Assembly (NCBI GenBank): GCA_949317995.1
Contig: OX439046.1
Span: 73,920,286-73,984,285, forward strand
DNA length: 64,000 nt
Direction of reading: 5' to 3'
Origin: Acholoe squamosa
Lineage: Eukaryota; Annelida; Polychaeta; Phyllodocida; Polynoidae
This document shows, in pieces, positions 29,061-64,000 of the stretch. The notes beneath the pieces were generated by a model that worked only from the letters and a program-made list of their open reading frames with translations, ran no database searches and was not told where the DNA came from. Position 1 is the first letter of the stretch. Each line of letters starts with the position of its first letter. The translations under genes and the position numbers were made by a program.

Positions 29061-29061
29061 C

Positions 29062-29074: not shown

Positions 29075-29076
29075 AG

Positions 29077-32000: not shown

Positions 32001-32163
32001 CCGAGTGGATCGCCGAACTGTAAAGTGTTTTAGATGCCAACGCATGGGACACTATTCGTCTGAATGTACCGCTGCTAAACCGGTAATGGCTGCCTTCTAT
32101 GAACCCGAAGACAACGGCGAAGGAAGGGAGAACACTACGGATTCCACTGATGTGGAAAACTAG
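29077..32163 (+). pseudogene. gag: Gag, interrupted by one stop
   Basis: Structural polyprotein that packages the element RNA. The frame is open from before the primer site (29014), with no ATG until 29224. It is cut by TAA at 29848-29850 and continues in the same frame to TAG at 32161-32163. After the stop comes a Glu/Lys/Arg-rich coiled coil (about 29860-30440), then a Pro/Gly/Ser-rich spacer. A capsid region (about 31120-31630; 'EYDGTRPWKEWFEDF', 'FKKRTQKPNEAFRAYG') resembles the retrotransposon gag family. One CCHC zinc knuckle (CFRCQRMGHYSSEC) starts at 32026. At about 1030 codons it is long for a Gypsy gag. The TAA looks like a nonsense mutation. Confidence 0.85.
32151..32163 (+). other. 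Gag-to-protease frame change, candidate -1 frameshift site
   Basis: The protease frame is -1 relative to gag and opens at 32151. Directly before the gag stop the bases read G GAA AAC TAG. GAA-AAC could re-pair in the -1 frame as GGA-AAA. It is not the canonical heptamer, so this is a candidate only. Confidence 0.45.
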
Positions 32164-33026: not shown

Positions 33027-33058
33027 TCTATCTGAAGCGAGGCGACTGTATTGGGAGG

Positions 33059-36309: not shown

Positions 36310-36817
36310 CTCAGTACACAACGAGCTGCTGCGTGTTGTCCGCCATAGTCGGGTAACATATGTCCACGGCTGGAGATGCCGAACGTGCCCTCCCCGGGGA
36401 GCTGTATCCCGTGAGCGGCGGTCGGATTAACCGGTACATTCGCTTTGAAGCGTTGTATACCCTGCCAAACTCCAGCAGATAGCACTCGGGTGGTAGGCCG
36501 CGTCCCGCATGTCGAGTCGAATGTTAGTTCGGATCTAGTTCCCTAGGTGGCGCCGCGGGTGCGGCGGGAAAGGTTGGAACTAGGTCACCGGATAGCCACG
36601 GCGGGATCTCGCGAGGCGAGATACGTGACGTCATACTGGTCATAACTAGAGCGGACTCGTGGTGGTTAGACGCCACCCGTTTTTGCTCTAGTTGCTGTTG
36701 GCGGTTTACAGGCCCCTAGCTGTCGGTTAGCTTGTCTAACACCACCTTTTGTTGGACGAATCCTTCGGGAGGAGTCCAACACAGACGCCAAATTATTTGG
36801 AAGTCGCCCTCAGTGCC
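36310..36817 (+). other. Spacer between pol and accessory ORF
   Basis: GC-rich, about 500 bp, no supported coding frame. It could hold a splice acceptor or internal promoter for the downstream ORF, but no strong signal was seen. Confidence 0.4.
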
Positions 36818-39800: not shown

Positions 39801-40301
39801 GAGGCTCTCGAATCCTGCCGGCGTCAGCAAAAGGAAGCCGAAAAGCTTAAGGAGTTTCACCAAGCTGAAAACGCCAGATACATCCATAGGTTTAAGGAGG
39901 CTGACCTCAAGTTTTTCCTGGCATTCGGGAAACATCTGGAGGAGTGGGACGGCTTACCGTCGTCCCTTATCTTCATACCAGATATACCCCCGGATGCCCC
40001 GCCAGCCCCGGCTACTCCACCGGTTCTGGCCACTCCACCGGTCCCGGCTGCTCCGCCAGTTCCGGCAGCTCTCCTGCTCCCACCCCCTACCGTCACCCGG
40101 ACTGTTACAACTGCCACGGTCGCTTCACCAGCATCCGAGGCAATGGACAGTCCATCCGCGGTGATGAGGGCCTTGAGCTTGGAGGGCGATACGCCCAGCG
40201 AGGCTTCCGCGGCGCTCTCTACGAGCAGCTGTAGCAGCTCGGCTCCATCTGCCACAATGGAGTCGGCTGAGAAGATGGACACGGATCCGGAAGATCTTTA
40301 A
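36818..40301 (+). CDS. Accessory ORF3: zinc-finger / coiled-coil protein
   Basis: This occupies the env position but has no signal peptide or membrane segment. The best start is ATG 36818 in frame 2 with a strong Kozak context (GTGCCATGG). Around 37150-37170 the sensible reading moves to frame 3, which is open from ATG 37050 to TAA 40301 (1083 codons), so a frameshift or unseen splice lies there. Numbering from 37050: acidic/Ser-rich and Ala/Thr/Pro-rich disorder about 100-340; two C2H2-type fingers, C476/C481 with H500/H504-505 and C514/C524 with H539/H544; Gly/Arg-rich 'RGRGRGG' about 775-810; a coiled coil about 895-940; a Pro-rich then acidic tail. Function is unknown. RNA or chromatin binding is a guess. 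The codon pattern looks genuinely coding. Confidence 0.7.
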
Positions 40302-41083
40302 GTGTCCATCTGACGGTGTCTCCTTTGTACCCGAGGGTAAAAGCATTTAATATGCGAAAGGCACTGTTCCTTACGCTGGACTCCTGATATCTGGAACGTA
40401 ACCTGCAGCGAAGATGGACGCTAAACCCGACACACCAAAAAGGGATTACCACACCTACCCGGGGCTCCATCTTCCCATCTTCATCAGGGCACATCACAAC
40501 AGCAACGTGGCTTGCCACCACACATATGTCGCCGGATGGAGCTGCAGAAACCAGTCGTTCCAGATTCGCGGGAAGTCCGGTATATTGTAAGGGTGATCCT
40601 GCTACCCTGGTAGGACACCTCTATTTGTCAGTATTATTATTTTTGTATAAATATATTTTTATACCAAATATATATTTTTGTAATAAAAACAAACAAATTT
40701 TTCTCTCGGAATATCTACCCCACCTCGGGTCGGTTAGTTAATACTGTAAAATTTTATTCATATCGCCTGATTACTCGTCTACGACTTTTTAATGCGTCTT
40801 GTTCATAATAATAACACTATTGTAACACTGTTACTACACATCACCATAGGTCGATGGTGCATAAGGCGCCACTTCCTATTTGTTATTATTAATTACCACT
40901 ACTTCGGGTTATATGCGACGATGCCTCATTATGTACATATTATTTATAATGCCCCTAAATGTTCTATATGCTATACGAACTGTATATATAGACTTACCTA
41001 TTTGTGTATAATATTATTGTATAAAGTTAACAATAGGTATTTATTAATTACACCCAACCCTAGGTATAGTCTAGTGGGGGTGG
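40302..41083 (+). other. 3' untranslated region and polypurine tract of element 1
   Basis: GC-rich to about 40600, then very AT-rich to 41060. AGTGGGGGTGG at 41073-41083, directly before the LTR, is the likely polypurine tract that primes plus-strand DNA. No ORF is supported. Confidence 0.65.
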
Positions 41084-41448
41084 TGTAGGGGCCGGTATCG
41101 TCGTATATATATTAGTGCCGTTCATCCGAGAGACGTGTTCGTGTGGTGCCTGTTCCTTCTATGCCAGCTATGTGTCGCTTTGTGATACCCCGTTGGTACA
41201 AGAGGGGGCGGCAGCATGCCTCGCGTCCAGCTCCTACTAAGGAGCCGGACGAGCGGCAGAAGGTGACTGGATCTAGTCCAGTCCAGACACGCAGCCTAAC
41301 CTGTAGACTAGAGTGGAATAAAGTCCTACCTGAGAGGTAGGGGTTTCTGGGGCTTTGCCCAACCCGAACTACTCGTGTTGTGTTGGTATTTCTAGTGGTA
41401 AGCGAGCCAAAGAGCCACCCAACATATAAGTCAATACGAACCATTACA
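41084..41448 (+). repeat. 3' LTR of Gypsy element 1
   Basis: 365 bp, identical to the 5' LTR except for four substitutions (G/T, C/G, G/A and C/T when read 5' LTR to 3' LTR). AATAAA is at 41317-41322. Confidence 0.95.
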
Positions 41449-47488: not shown

Positions 47489-47519
47489 CAGCAGCATGTA
47501 AAGCACTATAAGAAGATAC

Positions 47520-48195
47520 TGTCAGTAGACCGTTATAGGTATTGTACTTATCATATTTATTTTTCACCTTGACTCTACCATGTAACCCAGTGTCCGAGTC
47601 TACCCACAAGCCAAACCATACCAAAGACCAAAGGCTGGCGGCGTCAACTGCACTCAGTGACCCCGCCTCCTCCCACTGGAGGATACGCCGTCAATCACAA
47701 GCAGCTCGCTGCATGCTGGAAATTCCTAGCAGACAATGTTTAGAAACAACTCCTCCTGCTGGAGGACATGCCCATTGATCATGAGCAGCTCACAGCATAC
47801 CGGGAGTTCCCAGCAGCTATATTTAGAACCACACTGAACTCTGTGAACCCCAGTGCTATGTTTGGGATTCCCCCTACATACCTGCACTGGAGTTCCCCAG
47901 TTACTATATTTAGCTCACCTGATACTATTTTTAGGATGAGCTGGGTGAGCAGCTCCTACTACAAATACCTGTGGAGGGAGCAGCTCACTCATCTTTCCAC
48001 CTCCATACTTCATACCTCACACACTCACGTGAGACCAAGGCCCTTGGCTCAAGGGCTAGGCTTGGACACTGTTGGGCACCTTTATACTGTATCACCAACT
48101 ATACCTCGTGGACTTCAATGAATAAAGTGGATATCAAACTGGATTCCTGATTCGTCTGTATTCATCCTTATTCATCATTTACGGACTCGTTGACA
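47520..48195 (+). repeat. 5' LTR of element 2
   Basis: Ends form a 5-bp inverted repeat, TGTCA/TGACA. U3 holds a tandem repeat of about 84 bp (from 47666 and 47750; shared words CCTCCTG/CCACTGGAGGA, GAGCAGCTC, TTCCYAGCAG, TATTTAGAA) plus a third partial unit near 47890-47930. Each later unit carries TATATTTAG, a TATA-like word. AATAAA at 48121-48126 would be the polyadenylation signal. Boundaries rest on one LTR only. Confidence 0.65.
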
Positions 48196-48196
48196 A

Positions 48197-48214
48197 TGGT
48201 GGAAAACCCTCACG
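48197..48214 (-). other. Presumed primer binding site, tRNA not identified
   Basis: TGGTGGAAAACCCTC follows the LTR by one base and starts with TGG as expected for pairing with CCA. I could not match it to a tRNA 3' end by eye. Confidence 0.4.
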
Positions 48215-48247
48215 TATCATCCCACAAGTTACCACCTCTCATGAGCC

Positions 48248-51200
48248 ATGGACAACAGTGAGACCCTACCAAAGGAGCCAGCCCCACAACGTATCCCCAC
48301 ATCTCTGAACAGAGATCAGCAAGAAGCCACCAGCACACAGTACACCACGCCGATAGACTCCTCGCCAGACGCGCTCCAGCTGGACCCAGTGCTGCCAGCC
48401 CACAGACGCACACATAAACAAACACCTGTGAGTTCAAACACCTTACCCTTTTCATCTACTATAGTGGACACCAATACAGGTGCACCCACCAGTACACCAG
48501 CAGGAGCCCCACCACCAGGTTTAAACCTCACCCTACCTGGTTATTCACCCTCAGAATCACCACCCCTGAGATTAGGTGGTCTTCAAAGTACCACATACAG
48601 CACGCCTGAAAATCAGTCACCTGGTTACCTCCACCTAGATAGCCATCTAGAGGAAAGATCCAATAGCCTGCAGGAAGCCCTGGAAGCTGCTGGACGGTCA
48701 CCCTCACCCAGCAGTGATTCTGATCCACTGTGCGCACCTGACCTAAGTTGGGACAACCTCACTGTACCAGACATCCAAGCCCACCCATCAGTAGCAGACA
48801 ATTACTGGAGGAGCAGGCTAGACTCAGCAATCCACAGGTGGAGAGAAAACAGACTCAACACAGGACGTGCACAGCAAATACCAACCGGAGCTACACCAAG
48901 CTACCAGTGTGGTGAGAGTCCCTCTGTTTTTCTAGACAGGATAAACCGTATTTTAGAAGAGCAGTGGCAAGACAACTCCAATCTCACCAATTTGCTAAGG
49001 CCGCACCAAAACCCACAGCCTGATAGCAATCCACCTGGAGGAAACCCTAGGCCTTACTACTCCTACTCTACCTCTGAGGAAGACAAGGCGACACCTCCAG
49101 CACCAAATTCATCCCTGAGCACGCCCCCAAGAGCCAGATCCTTTGAAAGGCCATACCCCACCCATAGACCCAGGAGAAGGGTACGATCATCCTCCCCTCA
49201 TAGGCCAAATACTCCTGTGTTTTACAGACTTCAAAGAAGCCTGGACTCTGCAGCTAGAAGAGGCGACCTAGTGGCCACTACTCCCATCCTACACAGAAGC
49301 AATCACTTCCCCGCCCACTTACAAACAGAGTCCACCTCTGAAGAAGACACAGAAGTAACCTTCCCCCACCTGCACAGAGCACCTGCCTACCCAAACATGG
49401 CCACTGCAGCTCCACCTCCAGAGTACAACCAGGATGACATGACGAGGAACATAGTCAGAGAATGCACCCAGGCAGTCAATGACTCCCTCTCCAACCTATT
49501 AACAGGACAAATGAACTTATTGTCTGCTGAAATAAAAAGGATTGGAGACGACTCCTCCTGCCAACTATCAAGGATAAATGACAGATTGAATGACATGGAC
49601 ACCTGGAAATCGCACCTGGAGAATGCCATTAGCCAAATACAGAGAAGAGCAGCTCAGGACAATGCTGATGTTCTGAGAAGGTCTGAAATAGCGTCAGCCA
49701 ATCTGTCTGACAGAATCAACAGAAACATTGATGGAATGAGAACTGAAATATTCAGGGCTATTGATAGGACAAGAACACCTACCAGCCAAAGCCAAAACAG
49801 CCATTTCTCACCCACCAACACTAGGCTACCCCCTTCAGGCCAACCTTCACAGGTTATGAGCACCTCTACCAGAATGCCGACATCATTACCGGTAGGATAC
49901 AGGCTCAGCCCCCCAAGCCTTTTCCAAAATACAGCCCGAACCATAGCGACAGGTGCCACGCCCACCCAACAAGGCGCGACACATGCAGGTTTTGGTAGTT
50001 CAGCCACAACCCACCAGATGGCGCCCTCTACCACTCGTCCATCACCGGTAGCCGCCACATCACTTTCAGGCAGTGTTTACAACCATGTATACATACCCCA
50101 CCAGGCACACACGCCCTACAACAACCCTATACCGATGTATGGTTTGTTTACAAACACTCCACCTGCCCAAGCAGCTGCCCACCAGACTGCAGCTCAGTCC
50201 ACACCAATGATACCAAATCTAGGACAATCCAATTTCTCCGCTCCCACTGGATACAGGAGTTTTGAACCTGAGCGACTCACATCTGCCCAATTAAGCTGTT
50301 TTAACAAGCCAGAACCCTTTGACAAGCCCTCTCCCTACAGGTCTGCAGCCAGATTCCTGGCAGAATTCAAATTCTATATAAGAAATGCATACCCCCGCAG
50401 CCCAACAATGCATGCATCCTGTATGTATACCTTTTTAAAGGGCAGAGCAGCACAATGGTTTTTCACAAACATTTTTGACAAACCAATCATGTATGACACT
50501 GAGGCAGTCTATACCGCCTTTCTCAGCATATTCAACCAGCCTGACCCTGCCACAATAATCAAAGGATATAGAAACAGAAAGCAGCAACCCAAAGAGACTG
50601 TAGAGGAATACATAGCAGATATGACCTTATTGCTATCCAACAGCAACCTGGATGAGTCTGTACAAGTGGACTATCTTATAAATGGCCTCAAGAATGAAAT
50701 AAAAAATGTTGTACTCTCAGACAGCCCCAAAAGCATTAGGGAAGCCGAGACAGCAGCATTAAAACAAGAATTGGTCATAGAAGCAGCCAAAGCAGCCCAT
50801 GCCTCAAACCAATCTTCAGACTTGTGCGCCATGAACTACAATAACTACAATGGGCAAAAGAACAACAGCTACAATGGCAACAACAACAACAATAACAGAT
50901 CCAGGAAAGATCAGTACAACAACAACAAACCCCCTGGAAACAGCAACAATAAACAGTATGACGATAAATCTAAGCCAGGATACAACCAAAATCAGCAAGG
51001 TTACAACAACTCCAGATCCGGCTCAAACAACAGATCAGGCTCCAAGAATAGATATCAGTCACCAGGCAGGAGCAGATCTCAGGAAAACAACAAAAGCAGG
51101 TCCAAATCCAGCGACACAAGAAATAACTTTGTTTTCATCCCTGTTGCCTCCACCCCCACCAACACCCGCCAGGTGTCCTTCCAGAAACTACTGGTCCCAG

Positions 51201-51358
51201 CAGATTTCCCAATCCCTGATGATTGGACCCAGCAACAAAAGAAATCCAGGGACCCAACACCAGGCAGAAATGACAACAAAAAGACAGGAGACAACCATCC
51301 TGACAACCAACCTCCTGATTCTGAACAAGGAGAACACTACAATGACAATATTGAATAG
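48248..51358 (+). CDS. gag: Gag polyprotein without zinc knuckle
   Basis: 1036 codons from ATG 48248 (GCCATGG context) to TAG 51356-51358. Residues about 1-390 are Pro/Ser/Thr-rich and probably disordered. About 400-520 is a coiled coil ('AEIKRIGDDSSCQLSRINDR'). About 680-860 is a retrotransposon-gag capsid ('FLAEFKFYIRNAYPRS', 'FLKGRAAQWFF', 'KETVEEYIADMTLLL', 'YLINGLKNEIKN'). About 865-960 is very Asn-rich then Arg/Ser-rich and basic. The last region replaces the usual CCHC nucleocapsid, as in errantiviruses such as gypsy, whose Gag also lacks a zinc knuckle. The frame is intact. It packages genomic RNA and assembles particles. Confidence 0.92.
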   Translation: MDNSETLPKEPAPQRIPTSLNRDQQEATSTQYTTPIDSSPDALQLDPVLPAHRRTHKQTPVSSNTLPFSSTIVDTNTGAPTSTPAGAPPPGLNLTLPGYSPSESPPLRLGGLQSTTYSTPENQSPGYLHLDSHLEERSNSLQEALEAAGRSPSPSSDSDPLCAPDLSWDNLTVPDIQAHPSVADNYWRSRLDSAIHRWRENRLNTGRAQQIPTGATPSYQCGESPSVFLDRINRILEEQWQDNSNLTNLLRPHQNPQPDSNPPGGNPRPYYSYSTSEEDKATPPAPNSSLSTPPRARSFERPYPTHRPRRRVRSSSPHRPNTPVFYRLQRSLDSAARRGDLVATTPILHRSNHFPAHLQTESTSEEDTEVTFPHLHRAPAYPNMATAAPPPEYNQDDMTRNIVRECTQAVNDSLSNLLTGQMNLLSAEIKRIGDDSSCQLSRINDRLNDMDTWKSHLENAISQIQRRAAQDNADVLRRSEIASANLSDRINRNIDGMRTEIFRAIDRTRTPTSQSQNSHFSPTNTRLPPSGQPSQVMSTSTRMPTSLPVGYRLSPPSLFQNTARTIATGATPTQQGATHAGFGSSATTHQMAPSTTRPSPVAATSLSGSVYNHVYIPHQAHTPYNNPIPMYGLFTNTPPAQAAAHQTAAQSTPMIPNLGQSNFSAPTGYRSFEPERLTSAQLSCFNKPEPFDKPSPYRSAARFLAEFKFYIRNAYPRSPTMHASCMYTFLKGRAAQWFFTNIFDKPIMYDTEAVYTAFLSIFNQPDPATIIKGYRNRKQQPKETVEEYIADMTLLLSNSNLDESVQVDYLINGLKNEIKNVVLSDSPKSIREAETAALKQELVIEAAKAAHASNQSSDLCAMNYNNYNGQKNNSYNGNNNNNNRSRKDQYNNNKPPGNSNNKQYDDKSKPGYNQNQQGYNNSRSGSNNRSGSKNRYQSPGRSRSQENNKSRSKSSDTRNNFVFIPVASTPTNTRQVSFQKLLVPADFPIPDDWTQQQKKSRDPTPGRNDNKKTGDNHPDNQPPDSEQGEHYNDNIE
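51356..51358 (+). other. In-frame UAG between gag and pol, candidate readthrough
   Basis: Gag and pol share one frame. The bases after the UAG (51359-51448) are open in that frame right up to the first pol ATG. The stop is followed by G, and GC-rich segments GGGGAGGCC (51365) and GGCCCCGCCCC (51389) could pair into a stem a few bases downstream. This recalls gammaretroviral UAG readthrough. A simple nonsense mutation cannot be excluded. Confidence 0.5.
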
Positions 51359-51448
51359 GACCCAGGGGAGGCCTACCATGCATCTTGCGGCCCCGCCCCC
51401 ACTCTGGACAACAAAATTAGAACGTCCCCCACATGCCATATTTCACAC

Positions 51449-54400
51449 ATGAATGATGGAGCAGAATTAAATTCAGCAGAACATCAGAACCACGACCCCC
51501 AGCCTGTGAATTGTGACGAAGACTCCTCATCAGACAGTGAGGACCTCTATGAGAACCAGAACAAGAGAATTTCCACCCTCCAATTAAAAGTCGAGACCAG
51601 TAAGTATGGGCAGCAAGGTAAGACCTCTTACATTAATACTGAATTGACTAAAGGCGCAGTTAATGTTGATATCAATGGCAGTTCTTACAGAGCCCTTGTA
51701 GACTCTGGAGCCTCCCTTTCCTTTATCAGCCAGAAAATGGCAGATAAAGCCATATCAACCCCCAATTTCAGACATGGTAGGAGATCTCGTATGGTTATCC
51801 TACTAGCTGATAAATCCTCAGTTCAGGTCAACAATTCCATCACCATAACCTTTCTAATCGATGACACAGAGTTTAAAACAAGACTACATGTGGTCCCAAA
51901 GCTAAACCACCCCATAATTCTTGGCGTAAAATTTATGACCAAATATAGGGCCAAAATTTCCTTTGGGACCAAGTCCCCTTCACCACACTTCATAAGAGCA
52001 GCCAAAGGTCTAACCATGCCACCAAATTCTGAATCCACATTCAATGCAATCGTCATAGGACCTGATTCCTTAATAGGTAAAACAGGCATCACAGAAAATG
52101 TTGACACGACATTACCGGTACTAATCAAACACGCCCTTGTTGAACCAAGGTCAACAAGAAAAATCATACCGGTAGCAGTGGCCAACCCAAATGATTTTTC
52201 CATCAACATCAAAAAGCACATGAACCTAGGCATTTTTGCACTTAACAATCTAAACAAAGCCATTCCCATTGGAAAACTGAACAGCCAACACTCCCTCAAC
52301 AGCATAATCTCTGACAAAGACATGCTCCCCATCAATTGTGGAGATGATCCCCTAGATCAGCTACCCAAAGGGGACGACCCTCTAAAATACACAATATGCG
52401 ACAAGCTCACTGAGGCCCAAAAACAACAAATCAAAAACATTGTTGAATCAAATAGAGAGGCTTTTGTATTAAATGAGAGTGCTATAGGATTAAATGTTGA
52501 AAATGAGGTCAAATTAGAATTAAACCCTGATTTCAAACCCTGCAACAGACCATCCTATAGAATGTCACCCAAGAAAGAGATTTTCCAAAGAGAGCTGTTA
52601 GATAAACATTTACAGCAAGGTGTCATTGAAGAATGCACCAAACCCTGTGAGTGGAACTCCCCAGCTTTCTTAGTACCCAAACCCCAGGGAGACAGGTCTG
52701 TAGCCTCAGGATGGAGAATAGTCGTGGATTATAGATGGGTTAACCAAAACCTAAAATCTTTTTCCTACTCCTTCCCCAGAGCAGACGATCTCATGCAACA
52801 AGTTGGCAGAACAGGTGCTAAATATTTTTCCAAATTGGATGTATACAGCGCCTACCATCAAATTCCTCTAGCTAAAGAATCAAGGCCTTTAACAACTTTC
52901 TCTGCCAATGGCACAAGATATATGGCCAAAGTATTACCCATGGGTTTAAAAACTTCTGGTTTGTCATTCATGAATGTAATGGAACAATTGCTCATGAAGT
53001 GCAAATACAGAAATGCAGTAGCCTATGTGGATGATGTGGCCATATACAGCCCCACATGGGAAAGACATCTGCAAGACCTAGATGAAGTGCTAAAACTTTT
53101 CATCAAAGGAAACATCAAATTAAAATCCGAAAAATGTGAATTTGGCACCACCAAAATGGAATTCTTAGGTTTTACCTTAGATCAACACGGCATCTCACCT
53201 TCCCCAGACAAAATCTCACCGGTTAAAACCTTCCCAGCACCTAAAAACATCCACGACCTTAGGTGTTTCAATGGAATGGCACAATTTTATAAGAGATTCA
53301 TTAGAGGTTTTGCCCATATAATGAAGCACTTATATGAAGCCACAAAGGGTACCTTCAAATGGACCACTCAATGCCAAACAGCCTTTGAAAAAATCAAAGC
53401 ATCAATTTGCACTGAGGCAATCCTAAAATTCCCAGACTATAACAAACCCTTTATCATCTTCACAGACTCCAGCAATTTCAGCTTAGGAGCAGTTATTACA
53501 CAGGTAGATGAACATGGTTTTTATAGACCCATTGAATTCTCTGGGAGAGGTCTAACACCTCAGGAAACCAGATATGGAATAACTGACAAAGAGCTACTTG
53601 GGATAATCTTCGCTGTCAAAAAGTTCCACCATTATGTGGACGGCACTCACTTCAAAGTATATTCAGATCACACAGCCCTAGTCTCCCTCTTCAACAAAAA
53701 GGAGAATATCACCAATGGGAGATTGGCAAGATGGATAGATACTGTTATGTCCTATGATTTTGAAGTGAAATACCTACAAGGTAGAGCCAATCTAGTGGCA
53801 GATTGCCTGTCCAGAAGAAAATATCCCCCTGGCTCTGATGATCCAATACCAATTAGATCACAAGGAAGAATTATCCTCCCACCAAAGAAGGTACAATTTT
53901 CAGATATATCCATAACAAAAGTTTTCAGATCAGATGATCCAATTCCCAATAATCCCATCTGTTTGGGACCTCCTAGATCAATATTAAAAGGAGGCAAAAT
54001 TTGGGGAAGCACAAATATACCACCAAAAGGCATCATAGCAAGAAAAGGCACCCCGGAAAGGCAGCAGGGTGTGAATCCTGACCTGTGTGTACTCACTCGA
54101 GCACAGTCCCAGTCCCAGGACGACACACCTCCAGCAGCCAGCCAATCAGCGCCCAGTAAAAAGACCCGCCCACTCAAGCCTAAGCGCAGCAGTCCTCGCC
54201 CCAGAGGCAGGCCCGCCAAATCTAGGTCACCTAGGGTCTCCATCAAAACTGCAAACGCCAAGAGAGCTAAGCTCTCCCGCCGTGTGCTACCTCTAGCTGA
54301 AAGGGCAATTCAGGAAATCTGTAAACACCAATCCCTGACACCTTCTAGAGAAACACTAATTAAAAGCCAAAAAGAAGACCTTTTTGCATCCTCCATGGCA

Positions 54401-55843
54401 AACTACATTGAAAAAGGTAGCCTGCCACACGACTCAGGATTAATGAATCAAATACTACGTAACCACGACCAATTCATCTTACTGGATGAAGTCCTCTTTA
54501 GAATTACTGATACCAACTTGGGTAAAACCTTAGAGCCCACACTGCAAATTGTAATCCCAGAAAAATGGACAGAATCTTTAGTGGAAGCAACCCATTGCTC
54601 TCCCCTAGGTGGACACCTAGGTCCAGTCAAAACCTACACAGCCATAAGAGCTAGGTATTACTGGAGATCAATGTTTAAAGAAGTCTTTGATTTCTGCGGC
54701 ACTTGCCACACATGCCTGACCACCAAAAAGAGACCCAAAAACCTGAAAACTCCAATGAAACTACGTGACCCAGTACTTACAGCATACTCTCATGTCACCA
54801 TGGACACAATAGGCCCTTTTTCCAAGGCCGCTGATGGCTCTCACTACATACATGTGGTGACCGACCATGCCACCAGGCATGTAACTGCCTGGACAAGTGA
54901 AGAAAATACGGCTGCAATTGTAGCACTTGGTTTCTTCCAAAAAGTCATATGTATCCATGGCACTCCCTCAGTACTGAACACAGATAATGCCCAGCAATAC
55001 GTCTCAAAATTATTCAAATATTTCTGTGAAAAGTTCGGCATTAAACATGTGACAGGAAGTGCACATTGGTCTAGGTCTCAAGGTCTCTGTGAGCGCCAAC
55101 ATCAAACCATAGAATCATCCCTCAGAGCCTTTGTATCAAAATCACAAAAGCATTGGTCAACCTTCCTACAAGCTGTAGTCTTCAGTATTAATAATACTGT
55201 AAGCAGCGCTTTAGGCTACTCAACAAACTTGTTAGTTTTTGGCAAGCAGACACACCTACCAACTGAAGCAGCCTTGTCCTTGATTAAAGCTGAAAAAGAC
55301 TCAAGCACCAAGGAGAAAATTATGGCCAGCCTACTAAAGTTTAGGGATGATATTCAAATGAAAGCTGCAGAAAACATGATCTCTGCTCACAAAAAGATGA
55401 AAGCCAGACATGATACTTCAGCAGAACTCAGCTCATATAACACAGGCCAATTGGTATATTTACATATACCCACCCTACTGGTCAAATGCACATCAAAAAA
55501 GTTGCAACCCACATACTCAGGCCCCTACATCATAATGAAGATGACTTCACCAGTTACAGCTATTTTAAAAAGGCTACAAGATGGAAAAGTACTGAAAAAA
55601 TCAGTACATGTATCAAGGCTGAGGAGACCAATCACAAGAGCTAGCGCCAAAGCCATCATAAAAAGGCTACAATCAGGGCCCACAAGCTCACTTCACAACC
55701 CCGACCAGGATGACCCCTCCAATGTGAGTCTCACCACTCCCAAAATGAAGAAAAAGAGAGGAAGGCCAGCCAAAAAGGGAATAATCTCCTTCAGCCCCAT
55801 GCCCTCCAGAAAATCAAGAAAAATTTCTAAGCGTCCATTATAG
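51449..55843 (+). CDS. pol: Pol polyprotein: protease, RT, RNase H, integrase; intact
   Basis: 1464 codons from the first ATG; if readthrough occurs it is fused to Gag with about 30 more residues. Protease: DSGAS at residues 85-89 with 'HPIILGVKFM'. RT: 'WRIVVDYRWVN', 'SKLDVYSAYHQIPL', 'LPMGLKTSGLSF', catalytic YVDD at 526-529. RNase H: 'IFTDSSNFSLGAVI', 'TDKELLGIIFAV', 'YSDHTALVSLF', 'ANLVADCLSRR'. Integrase: HHCC zinc domain ('GGHLGPVKT', 'CGTCHTC'), then D1119, D1179 and E1215, the last two with 35 residues between (D,D-35-E). The C-terminus is basic ('KKKRGRPAKK'). All catalytic motifs are present and the frame is unbroken. The order is Ty3/Gypsy. Confidence 0.95.
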   Translation: MNDGAELNSAEHQNHDPQPVNCDEDSSSDSEDLYENQNKRISTLQLKVETSKYGQQGKTSYINTELTKGAVNVDINGSSYRALVDSGASLSFISQKMADKAISTPNFRHGRRSRMVILLADKSSVQVNNSITITFLIDDTEFKTRLHVVPKLNHPIILGVKFMTKYRAKISFGTKSPSPHFIRAAKGLTMPPNSESTFNAIVIGPDSLIGKTGITENVDTTLPVLIKHALVEPRSTRKIIPVAVANPNDFSINIKKHMNLGIFALNNLNKAIPIGKLNSQHSLNSIISDKDMLPINCGDDPLDQLPKGDDPLKYTICDKLTEAQKQQIKNIVESNREAFVLNESAIGLNVENEVKLELNPDFKPCNRPSYRMSPKKEIFQRELLDKHLQQGVIEECTKPCEWNSPAFLVPKPQGDRSVASGWRIVVDYRWVNQNLKSFSYSFPRADDLMQQVGRTGAKYFSKLDVYSAYHQIPLAKESRPLTTFSANGTRYMAKVLPMGLKTSGLSFMNVMEQLLMKCKYRNAVAYVDDVAIYSPTWERHLQDLDEVLKLFIKGNIKLKSEKCEFGTTKMEFLGFTLDQHGISPSPDKISPVKTFPAPKNIHDLRCFNGMAQFYKRFIRGFAHIMKHLYEATKGTFKWTTQCQTAFEKIKASICTEAILKFPDYNKPFIIFTDSSNFSLGAVITQVDEHGFYRPIEFSGRGLTPQETRYGITDKELLGIIFAVKKFHHYVDGTHFKVYSDHTALVSLFNKKENITNGRLARWIDTVMSYDFEVKYLQGRANLVADCLSRRKYPPGSDDPIPIRSQGRIILPPKKVQFSDISITKVFRSDDPIPNNPICLGPPRSILKGGKIWGSTNIPPKGIIARKGTPERQQGVNPDLCVLTRAQSQSQDDTPPAASQSAPSKKTRPLKPKRSSPRPRGRPAKSRSPRVSIKTANAKRAKLSRRVLPLAERAIQEICKHQSLTPSRETLIKSQKEDLFASSMANYIEKGSLPHDSGLMNQILRNHDQFILLDEVLFRITDTNLGKTLEPTLQIVIPEKWTESLVEATHCSPLGGHLGPVKTYTAIRARYYWRSMFKEVFDFCGTCHTCLTTKKRPKNLKTPMKLRDPVLTAYSHVTMDTIGPFSKAADGSHYIHVVTDHATRHVTAWTSEENTAAIVALGFFQKVICIHGTPSVLNTDNAQQYVSKLFKYFCEKFGIKHVTGSAHWSRSQGLCERQHQTIESSLRAFVSKSQKHWSTFLQAVVFSINNTVSSALGYSTNLLVFGKQTHLPTEAALSLIKAEKDSSTKEKIMASLLKFRDDIQMKAAENMISAHKKMKARHDTSAELSSYNTGQLVYLHIPTLLVKCTSKKLQPTYSGPYIIMKMTSPVTAILKRLQDGKVLKKSVHVSRLRRPITRASAKAIIKRLQSGPTSSLHNPDQDDPSNVSLTTPKMKKKRGRPAKKGIISFSPMPSRKSRKISKRPL

Positions 55844-56727
55844 ATCATAAGACGTTGTGTCAAACACCAAGCATCCATATAAACAACCCTCCTTTAATCC
55901 CCACAGGCGCCACGCGCCCCAACCAAATTAATCAGCCATTAATATACCAACCACTTAAACACACTGACAGCAACAGTCACAGCCCAACGCCCAACCTATT
56001 TATACTAACAACCATAAAAATTCCTATGCATCCAAAATCAACACTGCCTTGATTAACTGTATATACAACCACCTACCCATTCTAAGTGGAATGCCAAACA
56101 CTGGCAAATGGATTATCAAATAATTAGGTTAGGTTACCCACGCCACATACCGACCGCCCAAGGCAGCGCTGTATCCTCGGTTTGTGTATAAACTTCAAAA
56201 CACACATGCGACGGCTTGTTACCACTTCAAGACCACTATTTCCAATGATAAACCTATTGTAGGAAGATGGACCTCTGACACCCACACCCCATGTTTACAC
56301 CACTGTCTCTGCCAACCCTTAAGTGCTGTGGTGGCACATATACAAATCAATAACACACTGCCCTCAAGGTCTTTAAAAGCCACAGGGACGCCATAGCAAC
56401 CATATCACCTTGGCCAGGGATAAAACACCCCCCCGCCAAGCTTCCCAATATGCTATCTTTAGACAATATCTCACCACCAACCAATCCAGGCCAGGATAAC
56501 CCTAATTTGCATATGGGACCGTACAACCCCACTTGCATCCACCAATAATATTTGGCCTACGCCTCTTTCAAAGCAAGACATACCACCTATGGGAGATCTC
56601 AGACTGAGAAGTAGCCAAACTCAGTCTCAGGTTTATAAGCGCTTGCCCACCCACATCTGATCACAACACAACCCACAACCAATACCACCACACCTTAAGC
56701 ACGGCAACAAGTGTCTGGGAAGGGACC
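55844..56727 (+). other. Non-coding spacer after pol; candidate internal promoter
   Basis: No supported ORF over about 880 bp. TATAAG at 56634-56639 (TTTATAAGCGCTTGCC) lies 94 bp before the env start codon. The same TATAAG-N-GCG form recurs at 59600 and 59622. Confidence 0.4.
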
Positions 56728-56756
56728 ATGGCAGACCCATCATGCAACCAGCCCAG
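56728..56756 (+). CDS. env: Envelope gene, first coding exon (29 nt)
   Basis: ATG 56728 has a strong Kozak context (ACCATGG) and runs nine codons plus two bases to a splice donor, CAG/GTAGGAGT (GT at 56757). The frame stops at the very next codon if unspliced. Its phase fits exactly the acceptor at 57738-57739, where the envelope frame resumes just before a hydrophobic signal-peptide core. The phase match across a strong donor and acceptor is the evidence for splicing. Confidence 0.6.
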
Positions 56757-57006
56757 GTAGGAGTATCTTATGGGTCTATTTTAGCATTTAGGATTTTTAA
56801 CAGTCGTTCTAGCATTGTACATGATAGTAGTTTTATTATCATGGTGCCCAGGTACCCCTATTAACCAATGGCGGTGTGATCCTTAAGTGTGTGTAAAATG
56901 TGGAAGAACTTCTCCACTATCCTATAATTTTTAACATTGATAATCCAATTTACTAAACCTCTTCAGCCAAGCAAATTCCCCACCTTTACCTCTCTCCCAT
57001 TCACAG

Positions 57007-57566
57007 CCCACTTAGACCCTTTTTCCTTTATGACTTACAGCCTGGACCCACCGGCAAATAAGCACGGCCCAAATGCTACATGGACCATACACAGCCTCCT
57101 CGGACCACATGGGATCAGGAGTGATCTCATGGATCCTTTTGAAATTAGGAGCATAATCATGGAACAGCAACACCTCATCACCTTCCTTGCCCAGGAAGAT
57201 ATTAAACATTACCTCAGCAGCCCTGTGCTAAGACAGGAGCTGGACATGAGCAATCACTCCATAGCAGCAACCATAAAAGCCTTCATGGTCGCTGTAGCTG
57301 GGGATAATCCCCGCCGGCCTCCATGGGGCAGGTTTAACCATAGATCTGCATCATACATAGCACTCTTATGTGCTCGCACACTTCTAGCGTCAGAACAGCC
57401 CCTCAGGGACTTACCCCGCCAATACTCCAGAATTGGACGCGAACTGGCCATAAGGAATACAGCCAGCCTGGTATTCCAGTTCGCTGTTTTCGAGATAAAC
57501 AGATTCCATGCTCAAGCACGTGTACCGCCCCTGACGGTGACAACAGGCACCAGTCCATCTGCATAA
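57007..57566 (+). CDS. ORF X, 179 residues, unknown function
   Basis: This ORF lies entirely within the env intron. A strong splice acceptor (CTCTCTCCCATTCACAG, AG at 57005-57006) precedes it, and the first ATG is 57030 in frame 3; it stops at 57564-57566. The protein is helical-looking and basic at its C-terminal half, with 'RRPPWGRFNHRSASYIALL'. The WGR followed by small/hydrophobic residues vaguely recalls the Bcl-2 BH1 region, but no second Bcl-2 motif is convincing. The upstream 29-nt exon is out of phase with this acceptor for ATG 56728, so ORF X would start at its own ATG from an alternatively spliced or separate RNA. I do not recognise the family. Confidence 0.5.
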
Positions 57567-57739
57567 ATCCATTTCATGTAACAACAACCCAACCACCCAC
57601 AGAATCCCCGACCTTTGTAAATACTTGACCATACTAACATCCCATTTGTGACTAAGCTAATGCTATTTTTAAGTGAACCCCACCATCAAATTTCAAAAAA
57701 AAAATCCTCAAAATTTCTCAATTTTTCTCATTTTTCTAG

Positions 57740-58949
57740 AGCAGCAGCCATCCTAGCAGTCTGTATATTCTTACATCTGCTCCTCGGCTGCACCTCAACA
57801 TCAGACACCAATCTGAACACCATCTTCAGACCCAACTATGGCGCACTGTTTACCAAATTACCCCAAACATTACTAGCCAATTACATGGACTATCCGTTGA
57901 CCTTCAGCCTTAACTTGACCTTTGACCAGAACCTAAGTCAGCCAGAACTACTCAGCCCACTCATCAGCACCGATGCATCCCAATACATTAAGCACACAGC
58001 CCATGCCCTAGATAACATGATACAGAGCCTATTCTCCAAGTCAAAAACAACACTAGAAACCTTGTCAAAATTAATCTCCCCTCCAAACGTCAGGCAAGCC
58101 AGAAATGCCCCAGGCCAAGTCATCGGTGACATTTTAAGAGCTTCAATAGGCCTCGGGACTCAACCAGAAATTGATATTCTAAATTCTGAGATGTCTGACC
58201 TGGATAAAAAGTTGGCCACCAAAATGCACATGGTAGAATTAGCCACCCATTTCTTGTTAAATATTTCAGAATTTAATTACAATTCTGTCAACATCTTCTC
58301 AAAATTCCAAAACGACACCGATGATGCTCTATCTTTTATTTCCGGAAAATTAGAGCATTTAAATTCAAACATCTCATCAATATTATTAAAATTAGAACTC
58401 CAATCCAGACAAGATACCTTCTATTCCATGTTATTCACAGCAGCAAATTCTCAAATAGAGTCTTTAATTGACCTCCAAAGTGACTTGGAAAATCTACTCT
58501 TAACCATTAATAATCTACTTGAGGGCACCCTACCCCAATCCATAATTACACAAGACGACCTCAGTTTAGGTTTAAACAATTTATCCAGCCTCCTGCACGA
58601 GGTACATCACGGCATTATTTTAGAAGGCCTACCCATAAGTTATTATTATAGACGCCGAGTACATGTGCACTGGAGCCATAACTCGAGCCTGTTAATAACC
58701 ATACCAGTACCCATAACCAGAGGGGGAAGCACCTTTTCTATATTTAGAATAGAAACCTTCCCCGTACCTTTCGACACCTCCGACACTAAGTCAGTAGGTC
58801 ACACCCAGGTGGAGCCACTTCCCGGCTACTTGGCTATGTCCAGGACCCACTCACACTACATACAGTTTACACAAGCTGACCTGGATATGTGTGACCTCTA
58901 CCCCTATTGTCAGCCACACACCCCACATGCACTCTATCCTTATTTTTAG
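57740..58949 (+). pseudogene. env: Envelope (F-type fusion protein), main part
   Basis: Membrane fusion glycoprotein of the baculovirus F / errantivirus Env kind, judged by layout. A hydrophobic signal core ('AILAVCIFLHLLLG') opens the exon after the acceptor CTCATTTTTCTAG (57739). A minimal furin site RQAR (58092-58103) is followed by a Gly/Ala/Ile-rich stretch like a fusion peptide, then a long heptad-rich region (about 58170-58560). Several N-glycosylation sites occur (NLT, NLS, NIS, NDT, NSS). 'PGYLAMSRTHSHYIQF' and 'CDLYPYC' start the Cys-rich part. The frame ends at TAG 58947-58949. The protein appears to continue in another frame, so this copy is broken (or misread) by a one-base-type frameshift near 58930-58947, close to a T-run. 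Confidence 0.7.
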
Positions 58950-59539
58950 ACCTACCAGAGGCGGTGCACCATACCTGCAGTTTTAAAGCACACATGGCAG
59001 CACCCATACCAAATCTTATCCAACCCTTATCTCACAGTACCTTTCTATTAATAACTGACCATCCAACTTCCATGCTGCAATGCACAGATTCAGGCCAAGT
59101 CGAAATTAAAGATAGCGCATACTCAGTCATCTCAGTCCCATGCCTGTGCTCCATTAAAAATGCCGGCATGATTTTAACCAATTCTGATTTTTCTTGCACC
59201 CAAAATTTCACCCTAGAACCCATATCAAAGGCCTATTTCAATTTACCACTGTGGCGACATTTTGGTCAACCTCCAGCCAATGTCTCCGGCATCACCATGG
59301 CAACCACTACCCAGACCCTTCACCTGCCCAATTTTGAAAAATTAAAACACCTACACAATCAAAAAATAGCACCCCTCTTTCAAGACACAATAACCCTTAA
59401 AAGAGCCGCACAGGGACTTAAGGACCAATCCGCCCTCCTATCCACCAACTCCCTGATGCATCTGGGATATCACCTCCAGTTCTCACCTTGGATACACTTG
59501 GTATTATCATATACCATTTTATTATTCCATAAATTGTAA
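58907..59539 (+). pseudogene. env: Envelope, C-terminal part in shifted frame
   Basis: Continuation after the break; real coding starts about 58930-58945, and the ATG at 58907 is probably not a start. It holds five spaced cysteines ('HHTCSF', 'LQCTDS', 'VPCLCS', 'FSCTQN'), as in the Cys-rich half of F proteins. Glycosylation sites NFT and NVS follow, then a membrane-proximal helix and a C-terminal hydrophobic anchor ('WIHLVLSYTILLF') with a three-residue tail before TAA at 59537-59539. Confidence 0.65.
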
Positions 59540-59594
59540 CATATTTTGTATTAATTAAAGGATATCTATGAAATTAATACATAGGTTGGTTCTA

Positions 59595-59850
59595 AGAGCT
59601 ATAAGAGCGCTCAAAACTTTGTATAAGAGCGTTCATGCCCCACTGCACACCAGCCAGAGTCAGTTAGACAGAGTTTCTGACATCAAAGGCTCCGACCTAA
59701 TGGTTCACTGCACAATATAATAAAAATGAGGGTCTCAGTGTGCGACCTCATGGTTCAGTGCACAAACTAATAAGTTGTAAGTGAATGCAACCGGCCGTCA
59801 CGGGTGCCTGAGCACCGCTGACGCCGTCATGAGTGTCTGAGCACTCTAAT
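59595..59850 (+). promoter_or_regulatory. Candidate internal promoter with paired direct repeats
   Basis: Two TATAAGAGCG boxes at 59600 and 59622 are followed by TCAGTT at 59660, a possible initiator. Two repeat pairs follow: CGACCTMATGGTTCASTGCA at 59693 and 59743, and GCCGTCANGRGTGYCTGAGC at 59794 and 59823. GTAAGTG at 59777 is a strong splice donor and could end a 5' UTR exon of the downstream gene. All functional statements are inference. Confidence 0.4.
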
Positions 59851-60949
59851 AACTGAACAATGGGTTACATAAGCACGACGCCATAACCGTCCGGTCGCTC
59901 TAGCGTCGCTCCTGAGCAAGCTAGATCAAATATCAAAGCATTTATGGAAAGCCCATAATTAGACGGTCAGAATGAGCCCAAGATCGAGGCGGAACTCCCA
60001 TTATTAAGGAAGTTATGCCATGGAGACTGAATGGAGCTCCGAGTGCACTACAGACAAACCGGCGGGAGTTACGCGCCTATCCAGCGGGCAGTTCAAACTT
60101 GGCATATTCAACTCCGCGCATGCGCAAAATGGCGGCTGTAGCTGCGTTAACGACCGAGTTATGAGGGTTTGAAGTTACAGAACCGACCAAGACAATGGGG
60201 GACACAGCGGCGTCCATGGGGGTCCTTTGTGCACCCAGTGACACATGAAAGGCTCCCCTCTAACAATTGTAGAGTTAGGCAGATGCTACTGGCCCCAGTC
60301 AGTCTGGAGGTGCTTTTCCAAGATTTGCTACAAATAGCCTGTCTGCACCTCCAGGAGGACAGAACACCAAGAACCGCTCTAGAGGTAACATCTCCAGCCA
60401 TCTCCTGCTACCTGCCATACCACTGCACTATGGTGAAACTATGCTAGACAGGCATTGGTTTCCATCATTAGTGGCCAGGGGGTATCTTCCTCAAGACTTC
60501 CACCAGAGGGTAAAGTTATTCATTATTACATTATTCCTCTAAGCAGCAGGTCAGGAGCTAGGTGTGGGAACCCACCTAGAACTATGCTGGACATTGTATT
60601 ATTAATACCTCACAGGTGGAGTGGAACAGAACATTATACTTTATAAATTACTGTATATTTACTGTATGTACAAATCACCTACATACTAACTACTGTATGA
60701 TTGATATTTCTTACATGTTGCCTAAAGCTGAATAAACCAGTGACAACTGGAAATAACACTATTTTATGAGAGCTTAATGTATTTACACTATATACCACTA
60801 GTCTTATGATATTTCTCATATGACAACTTGATCATGCACAATAACTAGTATGACAGTATCACCCCTCCTGGCACTACTTTGCTGCGCATTAACCCTTAAA
60901 AACCATCTTCGTGTCAATCAGTTGGCGCGCTTTATCACACTAGTCTCAG
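59851..60949 (+). other. Non-coding; CpG-rich promoter-like patch then AT-rich
   Basis: GCGCATGCGC (60116-60125) directly followed by AAAATGGCGGC (60126-60136) is an NRF1-like plus YY1-like pair, typical of animal TATA-less promoters. The ATG inside it opens only 11 codons. From 60190 to 60450 there is a short open stretch ending in a donor-like GTAAC (about 60385), not recognised. AATAAA-like 'CTGAATAAACC' lies at about 60730. This section is less A/C-biased than its surroundings and may be inserted DNA. Confidence 0.4.
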
Positions 60950-63703
60950 CAACCCGAACACCCAAGATGGCTAATGCGGAGAGTTGGGATCATTTTAAAG
61001 ATCTGATACGCCAGGCTAACAAGGACTGGCCAGCCCCACCAACGACCCCAGAAACAGATCTAGAATATGTACAGTCGCCTGGCCGTTACCAGAACATGTT
61101 CACCTGGATTTTAATGGCAACCCTCCTATACATCACATGGATTACCGCCAAGAGGTGCCTGCTACACTGGCCCTACTGCAAACAGGACAGCCACAGGACA
61201 CCTTCAATTGTGGCCAAGATTCATGCCAACGGTCAAACCTTTGATTTCACCGTTGGCAAGATGATCTATGGACAAAATCTCTGGGCACCCATCATCACAG
61301 CCCCTAAGGTCTCCCCAGCTCGCCTTACAGCACCCCTGGGCAGACACTTGGATCTCCATTGGAAGTCCGACATCAGGACGATGATCGGGGGACAAGTCCG
61401 ACAGATCCCGCTGCAGCGCTATCCTCCGGTACCACTTCTATGGAGAATACCACTGTACAGAATCTTGAAGGGAGCCCACCACATGACAGTGGTCATCTCT
61501 TCAGAAGGACAGCCCGATTTCCAGCTGGCCTCCAGTGATACTGACTCAGCCATACAGCTACCCTGTGAGTCCTGGCCAGCTGATCGCCATGACTCCCCGG
61601 CAGAGCTCACTAAGTACACCCCACTCCGGCATCAGCCAAAAACAGGCAAATACATGTACAAGCCACCGGAGATGATGCTCACACCACCCTCAACATCAAC
61701 CCGCGGTAAGTTTCCTTCAGAAACCTCCTTTGATCCTCATGTGGGGATCAAATAGCCGCCGGCCACCCCCCATATAACCTAGTAATGGACTCTCCCGGTC
61801 GCCCAATCCACCAGATAGCCCCATCTAACACCTTCATGTGGGGATCATCCCCATCCTCAATAGCTCCAAATCCGACCCCCACCCTCAATTAAAACCATTT
61901 TACAACATCTCCAGTACCACAGCACGGTGTAGACCCACAATAACACAGTTATTTCGACTCACTGTGAAGGCCCACTGCACGATGAGACGTCGCCATCTTG
62001 TTTCTGACGTCGCGTCTGGTTCTCCGCCAAACGCTGCGTCAGAACGCCGGCGCTGCGTCTCACCACTGCCGTCGGCCTCCCCAACGTCAGATCTCTTTCA
62101 TTTTTCCCACGTTGGGATGACAACTTAACGTCAGTCAGGACACCCCCACTCAATATCTGCGTCAAAACAATAACATAAGCACGTGTTAGCAATATCACTA
62201 GACTTGTTTTCGACCCAAGTTAACAATACCACCCCGCATGAGATTTGAGAGCCCGCCCATGCCAATTTAGAATCCCAGAATAAACAACATAACTTCTAAC
62301 TGGTGGTGGACTTCTTATATATTATCAAATTATCACAGATCAAGCTCCTGGCAAACGAGTTATTCGTCATCACAGTTTTTCATTGTAAAATCATCATCAA
62401 ATCACAGTCAATCGCATTAGGCCGGGCCACCTTCTGGAACTGGTCCTTTTTCCATCTTACTGGCGCACTCAATCCTGTCTACCGGCAGGTACTTCTACGC
62501 CTCAGTTTCTGGAAGACACAATTAATGAGCCCCTGTGAGCCACCACTCTACCTAATAAAATCTAAAGTGAGATCAAAATCCAATCTTCTTTTAGCAGACT
62601 GATTTTCCTTTTCAAACAAATTCCAACCAACTCACTCCAAATTACATTTACCAGCCAGGGCCATCAGAACACGCCACAGGGCCCACTGGCCCGTCCCTCA
62701 GGGCCATCGGGCGGTCCACGGACCCGGTGACATAGCACTGGCACCTGCCCGACATGAACCCAAACCAGGACAATCCTGAAACAAAAAAAACATGGCGTCA
62801 GACCACCGACACCACGCCCAAATACACGAAAACCCCAAAAAATCGAAAATTTGTACTGGTACTCACCCAAACATGCCCACCAGCACCAGCAGGAGAAACA
62901 GACATCCTGAAGGCATTACTACGAGCTGAACCCGTACAATCATGGTCCCGTGGTTTCTTTCTTTCGGGCCGTAAATAATCCAAAATCTATGGCTCGTCTC
63001 GTCAGTCATGTATCGCCTTCCAATGCTAAAAATAGCTCCACATCCCTTTATAGCAAGACCCACCGCGGGAGCATTGAGTTAATTTTTGAACCACCTTTTT
63101 CGACCAGGCGCACTACCAAAATTCAAAATTTCAACCAATTAACCTCACCTTTAGGCCCAAAAACACCTAACCCAACATCGGAACAGACACTCACACATGA
63201 CCCAACAAGGTCATGGCAAGTCTACACCATTCACCATACCATTTCCCCATACCATTTCACGAACGCCGAACAAACGCCAGCTCAGTGGCGCCAGCCAATG
63301 TTTATCGCATGAACTAAATAAGAACAGATCCCCATGTAGTGGCGCTACCCGTGCCGCGCATCAGAACTAACCTGGACCCTGGATATTCCAGTTTCCCGCT
63401 CACATTTGGCCATGAGTCTACACCGGCCCGGTGACACTGCACATCAATTTGCACTGCCCAATTCACTGCCTTACCTGTCAATTTGGTATTTTTGTTGGTC
63501 GCCTTGTAATCCATGCACTATAATCGACCCTAAAACTAAAAATCCCCCCTTCTCTTGTTCTGTTTTTCAATACAGAGGCCAACGACCTAATCGAGGAGGC
63601 GGAGACCGTATTGACAGGCCAGCAGGAGTTTCCAGCAGCAGGCCAGGCACGCCCATACCAACCGGCCTGCCCCATTGGAGCGCACGAGTCTGCTCTCCAA
63701 TAG
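60950..63703 (+). CDS. Gene Y: spliced membrane protein (60950-61705, 63576-63703)
   Basis: The frame is open from ATG 60850. ATG 60967 (CCAAGATGGC, strong context) is preferred, just after an acceptor-like TAGTCTCAG at 60949. Residues about 45-62 from 60967 form one membrane segment ('MFTWILMATLLYITWI') with a short N-terminal part and a long, basic, Pro-rich C-terminal part. A strong donor, CGCG/GTAAGTTT (GT at 61706), ends the exon in phase 1. A strong acceptor (CTCTTGTTCTGTTTTTCAATACAG, AG at 63574-63575, shown in parts) opens 42 codons in matching phase, acidic first ('LIEEAETVL'), to TAG 63701-63703. Unspliced, the frame stops at 61753-61755. I do not recognise the family. It might be an accessory gene of the element or a host gene beside it. 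Confidence 0.5.
61706..63575 (+). other. Presumed intron of gene Y
   Basis: 1.87 kb bounded by GTAAGT and a pyrimidine tract with CAG. At 61984-62135 it contains several CRE-like words (GACGTC 61985, TGACGTC 62004, ACGTCA 62083 and 62128) and CCATCTTG, which together look like a CpG-type promoter. A 74-codon frame from ATG 62754 to 62978 reads plausibly but has no recognised domain. Confidence 0.4.
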
Positions 63704-64000
63704 GGCCACCCACTAGATTTGCCACCCTGGGAACAAATTGTCCCCACCTAATGTACAGCTACAGTTGCCCATGCAGCATCAACAAAGACAATAGACCAGA
63801 AACTTTCAAAACAATTGGCTCGACCCAGGTCTGGAGACCCCTACCCAAAATATACCAAGCTTCATCTGAGGAGGACAGTGACTCTAGCACCTCCCTCTCA
63901 GCAGAACCAATAAACATGGACCCTGCATACAGTTCCGATCTGAATTTGCAGCCTGACTCAGGCAAGCCTAGCAGAATGCATTTCAGCAAAATTGTAAACT
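63340..64000 (+). CDS. Open frame running off the window end
   Basis: Frame 1 has no stop from 63340 to the last base (220 codons). ATGs are at 63412 and 63751. It overlaps the last exon of gene Y in another frame, so part of it is chance. The part after 63700 reads best: a Cys-containing start, then an acidic serine cluster ('SSEEDSDSSTSLS') and a Pro/Ser-rich stretch. It may be the start of a further gene or a downstream exon. Not recognised. Confidence 0.3.

What the first reader, a model, noticed from the sequence alone, without database searches (positions are those of the whole stretch)
47520..64000. Very large env-bearing Gypsy-type element with a multi-gene, spliced 3' half
After gag and an intact pol come at least three more coding units: ORF X, an F-type envelope and gene Y. 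Splice sites match in phase and candidate promoters lie inside the element. No 3' LTR appears within 16.4 kb. Most Gypsy elements are 5-12 kb with at most one extra ORF. A retrovirus-like layout with nested and spliced accessory genes in an animal Gypsy lineage would be new to me.
Basis: partly seen in the sequence, partly recalled or inferred. Interest (0 to 1): 0.9.

Follow-up and report, generated by a model that had tools for sequence, protein, structure and literature searches.

The report
Giant enveloped Gypsy element, extra genes

Summary
This copy's 3' LTR lies 6 kb past the window, so the element is 23.2 kb, with a 4-bp target duplication and 1 mismatch in 676 between its LTRs. 7 of 13 LTR pairs are 16.2-16.9 kb apart, so about 17.1 kb is usual. 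The excess is a 1351-bp solo LTR of another family (59505-60855) and a tandem duplication of about 4.76 kb. 'Gene Y' is the C-terminal third of env: 20 of 20 other copies lack the solo LTR and have one frame across the junction; 10 of 20 hold an unbroken 901-925-aa ORF. The layout is gag-(UAG)-pol-leader exon-X-env-Z. X, env and Z are under purifying selection (omega 0.14-0.22) and splice sites are conserved. Pol is Ty3/Gypsy-like. No relative was found for X, env or Z. I judge it a new variant of a known kind: a recently active Metaviridae element with foamy-virus-like gene complexity. No RNA evidence was available.

The parts
47520..48195 (+). 5' LTR (676 bp, TGT...ACA); flanking TSD ATAC at 47516-47519; 3' LTR outside the window at window-frame 70082-70757
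   Evidence: LTR pair differs at 1 of 676; ATAC directly outside both LTRs
48245..51358 (+). gag ORF (first ATG 48248), capsid-like domain at residues about 730-848, ends in TAG 51356-51358
   Evidence: Ty3_capsid E 3e-4, Retrotrans_gag 8e-4, both below Pfam cut-off; TAG in 24 of 24 covered sequences, i.e. this window plus 23 copies
51359..55843 (+). pol: protease, RT, one RNase H, integrase; same frame as gag across the TAG
   Evidence: omega 0.10-0.12 over 51449-52900 in six sequences, 0.49 over 51449-51559 with more sequences
55844..56727 (+). probably non-coding region with a TATA-like box TTTATAA at 56632-56638; candidate internal promoter
   Evidence: longest stop-to-stop ORF 87 aa; TATA in 17 of 17 covered copies; promoter function inferred
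56728..56756 (+). leader mini-exon with ATG (29 nt), followed by splice donor GTAGG at 56757
   Evidence: ATG and donor GT in 18 of 18 covered copies; use of the site inferred
57030..57566 (+). gene X, 178 aa, no relative found in Pfam, NCBIfam or PDB sequences
   Evidence: omega 0.17 (0.08-0.33) in 11 copies; 150 of 150 scored genomic copies without stop, best 150 of 1749 candidates
57740..59504 (+). env, 5' part: acceptor AG at 57738-57739, signal-peptide-like segment, basic cleavage motif, Cys cluster; frame broken between 58895 and 58949 in this copy
   Evidence: acceptor AG in 20 of 20 copies; omega 0.14; features read in L010
59505..60855 (+). solo LTR of another LTR family inserted in env; TSD GTAT 59501-59504 = 60856-60859
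   Evidence: absent in 20 of 20 other copies
   Evidence: one frame across the junction in 20 of 20 other copies; omega 0.19
61707..63575 (+). candidate intron: donor GTAAGT 61707, acceptor ...TACAG 63575; encloses a CpG-rich patch at about 61.98-62.13 kb
   Evidence: donor 20 of 20, acceptor AG 18 of 18 covered copies
62451..63028 (+). variable block: aligns end to end with the window in 3 of 20 other copies (L010, L042, L045), poorly or not in the rest
63576..64000 (+). start of exon Z (continues past the window, stop near window-frame 64137); acidic Ser/Asp/Glu stretch then Arg/Lys-rich C-terminus
   Evidence: omega 0.22 (0.13-0.37) in 12 copies; sequence in L010/L009
59893..64000 (+). first unit of a tandem duplication of about 4.76 kb (window-frame 59893 to about 64649, repeated to about 69401)

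Best explanation
[not shown]
Against: No transcript, ribosome or protein data. The 90 nt between UAG and the first pol ATG show weak frame constraint (omega 0.60 in pol frame, 0.39 and 0.66 in the others), one or two copies have one-base gaps there, and no significant RNA structure follows the UAG (z +0.54). The next 110 nt of pol gave only 0.49. TATA-like boxes are common by chance. X, env and Z match no known family. Copies were taken from the best hits, which favours intact ones; even so 10 of 20 have a broken env, and single copies are rearranged (L016, L017, L041, L042, L047). Omega was computed from all pairs of related copies without a tree. The non-coding region before X also gave 0.31-0.35 in two of three frames.
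Confidence: 0.82

Rival explanations
1. A standard three-gene env-Gypsy element whose extra length is mostly captured host DNA and nested insertions; X and Z are passengers.
For: This copy does carry a nested solo LTR and a tandem duplication; LTR elements are known to capture occasional ORFs (PMC6431247, passages); a variable block lies between env and Z.
Against: A spacing of 16.2-16.9 kb recurs in 7 of 13 LTR pairs; X and Z show omega 0.17 and 0.22; 0 of 11 X and 2 of 12 Z copies have an in-frame stop; the splice sites are conserved.
Confidence: 0.1
2. A foamy-like endogenous retrovirus (Retroviridae) rather than Metaviridae: internal promoter, spliced 3' regulatory genes, about 17 kb.
For: Layout resembles foamy viruses, whose internal promoter and Env-Bet fusion product are described in PMC6950176 (passages); fish foamy-like ERVs of up to 17 kb exist (PMC6431247).
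Against: RT/RNase H scores 303 and 227 bits against Ty3 entries versus about 100 bits against the Pr125Pol entries (foamy virus by recall); only Ty3-type RNase H models and no second RNase H domain by Pfam.
Confidence: 0.05
3. Two abutting elements: a gag-pol Gypsy element plus an independent unit (X-env-Z) that were joined by chance at this locus.
For: X has its own upstream promoter-like region; Y seemed detached in this copy.
Against: 8 of 8 stretches picked from the X search have pol end, leader, X, env and Y in the same order; 10 of 12 3' halves show the same LTR downstream.
Confidence: 0.02

Closest known systems
Insect errantiviruses / iERVs (gypsy, ZAM)
   Same: Ty3/Gypsy pol; env downstream of pol made from a spliced mRNA in which an upstream exon supplies the start (PMC12992720, passages)
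   Different: Here the mini-exon lies after pol, not upstream of or within gag; about 17 kb; long env C-terminal part; extra genes X and Z; UAG between gag and pol; no Pfam F-protein match
Foamy viruses and fish foamy-like ERVs (up to 17 kb)
   Same: Candidate internal promoter, regulatory-looking spliced 3' exon, possible Env-accessory fusion by splicing (PMC6950176, PMC6431247, passages)
   Different: Pol is Ty3-like with one RNase H; X sits between pol and env; accessory genes match no Pfam family
Burro giant Gypsy elements of planarians
   Same: Giant env-bearing Gypsy with extra coding capacity (PMC6431247, passages)
   Different: Burro has env inside a huge polyprotein between gag and pol and totals over 30 kb; here env and accessory genes are separate units with splice sites
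Plant Retand/Ogre Gypsy elements
   Same: Long pol-to-3'LTR region (PMC11963269, abstract and passages)
   Different: Retand ORFs there are described as mainly antisense
Lokiretroviruses
   Same: Env-bearing vertebrate retroelements outside canonical retroviruses (PMC9040795, first of four parts read)
   Different: They have a dual RNase H; this element shows one

Membership tests
Metaviridae (Ty3/Gypsy) | Two LTRs flanking the internal region, 4-6 bp TSD | tested here: met
   (ATAC)
Metaviridae (Ty3/Gypsy) | pol order protease-RT-RNase H-integrase, Ty3-like, single RNase H | tested here: met
Metaviridae (Ty3/Gypsy) | Gag with Ty3-type capsid | tested here: inconclusive
   E 3e-4 and 8e-4, below Pfam cut-offs
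Metaviridae (Ty3/Gypsy) | PBS complementary to a host tRNA and a PPT | tested here: inconclusive
   ATGGTGGAAAACCC after the LTR and a purine-rich GGAATGTGGGGATT before the 3' LTR; no tRNA match established
Metaviridae (Ty3/Gypsy) | One to three genes (gag, pol, env) in the ICTV profile | tested here: not met
   five units gag, pol, X, env, Z with frame-specific constraint; ICTV text PMC7879559 read whole
Metaviridae (Ty3/Gypsy) | Position in an RT tree | not tested
   no named reference set at hand; nearest unnamed relatives 44-68% identical
Errantivirus | F-type (baculovirus F-like) envelope | tested here: inconclusive
   Pfam scan at E <= 10 gave no F family; fusion-protein-like layout only
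Errantivirus | Env from spliced sub-genomic RNA | tested here: inconclusive
   sites conserved, no RNA data
Errantivirus | Membership of the monophyletic errantivirus pol clade | not tested
   no named reference set at hand
Spumaretrovirinae / foamy-like ERV | Retroviral pol closer to foamy viruses than to Ty3 | tested here: not met
Spumaretrovirinae / foamy-like ERV | Internal promoter driving a transactivator | not testable with these tools
   TATA-like box only
Lokiretrovirus | Dual RNase H | tested here: not met
   only RT_RNaseH-type models matched

The most novel reading that the evidence does not exclude
Probability: 0.35. Interest if true: 0.85.

Novelty: new variant of a known kind. 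Interest (0 to 1): 0.68.

Why it matters
Complex regulation by accessory genes is usually treated as a retrovirus trait. A young Ty3/Gypsy family in which env and two unknown genes are under strong purifying selection, with at least 150 scored copies of X in one genome, would let one ask directly whether such complexity evolves repeatedly once a retrotransposon becomes infectious, and whether env is needed for its spread.

Tried and rejected
Gene Y as a host gene or separate element gene: rejected, because it continues env in 20 of 20 other copies. Missing 3' LTR as truncation: rejected, because it is at window-frame 70082-70757. Reinitiation of Pol at the first downstream ATG (an ATGA overlap in this copy): considered after a six-sequence test, rejected because 14 of 24 covered sequences lack that ATG. 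Structured readthrough signal after the UAG: no support. Relatives outside the genome: none in IMG/VR for pol, Y or env by pattern. Env gave none at E <= 1e-3; one search used a fragment whose length limits would have excluded full-length env, so one search repeated it with the full ORF of a natural copy. Rfam: nothing at E <= 0.5 in 55800-64000. Structure of X: AlphaFold without alignment, pLDDT 40, not used. The env fragment was never folded (tool not accepting jobs). Host species: not identified; a RAG1 search did not complete. Papers: Chary and Hayashi 2025 (eLife, env-carrying gypsy across metazoans) could not be opened; I saw it only as cited in PMC13172572 and PMC12859917 (passages). 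The titles and abstract starts listed by ten paper searches showed no vertebrate Gypsy element with this layout; that is no proof of absence.
Full report
Checking the observation. Pfam finds protease, RT, RNase H and integrase in 51359-55843 and weak capsid matches in gag. Among solved structures pol is closest to Ty3 (303 and 227 bits; then an 'Enzymatic polyprotein' at 135 and the rest at about 100 or less). No second copy of the LTR was found in the window.

Where the element ends. The window lies at G000:C12:73920286-73984285 in a 1.48-Gb genome of 63 contigs. The LTR query lists 40 places (a cap; the query itself included) at 99-100%. The second LTR of this element starts 22,562 bp after the first, so the element spans window-frame 47520-70757 (23.2 kb); its LTRs differ at 1 of 676 bases and the flanks show a 4-bp TSD, ATAC. 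Thirteen neighbouring same-strand LTR pairs can be read off the list: 7 of 13 are spaced 16.16-16.85 kb, the others 18.8, 19.7, 21.2, 22.6 (this one), 29.3 and 33.1 kb.

Why this copy is longer. Bases 59560-60780, used as query, match 40 listed places at 98-100%, with six same-strand pairs 14.5-15.0 kb apart (two further close pairs are 19.1 and 27.2 kb apart), so they belong to an LTR of another family. The whole insert is 59505-60855; here it stands alone, with TSD GTAT. It falls where GC skew drops to near zero and CpG rises. A unit of about 4.76 kb beginning at 59893 is repeated directly downstream at 99.6-99.9%, which is why Y occurs twice at this locus. Subtracting both gives about 17.1 kb, the usual size.

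Gene Y is env. I fetched twelve stretches of about 9 kb from Y hits, four of them also LTR hits (L010-L021), and eight X-centred stretches (L041-L048). None of the 20 holds the solo LTR; in 20 of 20 the env end abuts Y without a gap and one reading frame crosses the junction; in 10 of 20 (L010, L011, L015, L020, L043-L048) one stop-to-stop ORF of 901-925 aa runs from the fusion-peptide region to the end of the Y match; in L047 an insertion of about 1.3 kb cuts off the last 100 nt or so of Y. The other ten carry breaks. The order pol end-leader-X-env-Y holds in 8 of 8 X loci, and X-env-Y-Z in the twelve 3' halves, except that X lies just outside the fetched stretch in L016. Local damage: part of env repeated in L016, about 190 bp inserted near the end of X in L017, deletions inside env in L041 and L042. 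Ten of the 12 3' halves show the LTR within the fetched stretch; L017 and L019 do not.

Selection. With frame fixed by L010 and codons with gaps or stops left out, omega is 0.17 for X (codon bootstrap 0.08-0.33, 11 copies), 0.14 for the env ectodomain (0.11-0.19), 0.19 for the env C-part (0.12-0.29) and 0.22 for Z (0.13-0.37), 12 copies each. The other frames of these regions give 0.94-2.59, and stretches taken as non-coding 0.64-0.97; but the region upstream of X gave 0.31 and 0.35 in two of three frames (2.30 in the third) although it has stops, so omega alone is not proof there. In-frame stops occur in 0 of 11 X, 3 of 12 env ecto, 1 of 12 env C and 2 of 12 Z copies. In the genome search 150 of 150 scored X copies lack stops, but only the best 150 of 1749 candidates were scored.

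Expression signals. In the copies that cover them, the TATA-like box is kept in 17 of 17, the leader ATG in 18 of 18, donor 1 GT in 18 of 18, the env acceptor AG in 20 of 20, donor 2 in 20 of 20 and the Z acceptor AG in 18 of 18; the X ATG is kept in 18 of 19. By position, the 29-nt leader leaves two bases of a codon, and the env and Z exons each supply one, so both joins are in phase, as is donor 2 to Z. The env frame upstream of its acceptor varies by indels between copies, so env needs an upstream start codon; the leader could supply one. Whether the leader RNA starts at an internal promoter or is spliced from the LTR transcript cannot be told.

Gag to Pol. Gag ends in TAG directly before, and in frame with, pol. 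TAG is kept in 24 of 24 covered sequences (window plus 23 of 25 fetched pieces; one further piece mapped without covering the site, one did not map); pol frame has no stop after it (one or two copies have one-base gaps); the first later ATG is missing in 14 of 24. Readthrough is therefore the best guess, but codon constraint in the 90 nt after TAG is weak and no RNA structure stands out.

Host. CpG observed/expected is 0.05-0.42 in the flanking DNA at 26.5-28.5 and 41.5-47.5 kb, which suggests a methylated vertebrate-like genome; the species was not identified.

Comparison. ICTV describes Metaviridae with internal regions of 3 to over 15 kb and one to three genes (PMC7879559, whole text). Env-carrying gypsy elements are reported across metazoans (Chary and Hayashi 2025, seen only through PMC12859917 and PMC13172572). 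Giant env-bearing Gypsy elements and foamy-like fish proviruses of up to 17 kb with accessory ORFs are known (PMC6431247, passages). What appears new is the combination: a Ty3-like pol, UAG-split gag-pol, a post-pol leader exon, and two selected unknown genes flanking a long env, in a young multi-copy family.

Noticed in passing
28696-41383: A second LTR element (LTR copies 99% identical over at least 300 bp) with Gypsy gag/pol and a further 1141-aa ORF (36876-40301) after pol without Pfam match; CpG observed/expected 0.6-1.2 against mostly 0.05-0.4 in the flanks.
   Followed up: partly
59505-60855 and one search places: The solo LTR belongs to another LTR family with six pairs 14.5-15.0 kb apart, so it too may be an unusually long element.
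   Followed up: no
62451-63028; L010 4801-5600: Block between env and Z that aligns end to end with the window in only 3 of 20 other copies, while the sides align at roughly 78-97%; cause unknown (recombination or fast turnover).
   Followed up: partly
L010-L016, L018, L020, L021, 71 bp before the 3' LTR: The first 12 bases of the LTR also occur 71 bp upstream of the 3' LTR in 10 of 11 loci searched (not in this element's L009).
   Followed up: no
10360-11251: 28-bp minisatellite, about 32 copies.
   Followed up: no
23209-25124: AT-repeat-bounded inverted-repeat element of about 1.9 kb (96% complementary arms).
   Followed up: no
264-1403: Reverse transcriptase ORF of 379 aa, LINE-like by eye.
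   Followed up: no
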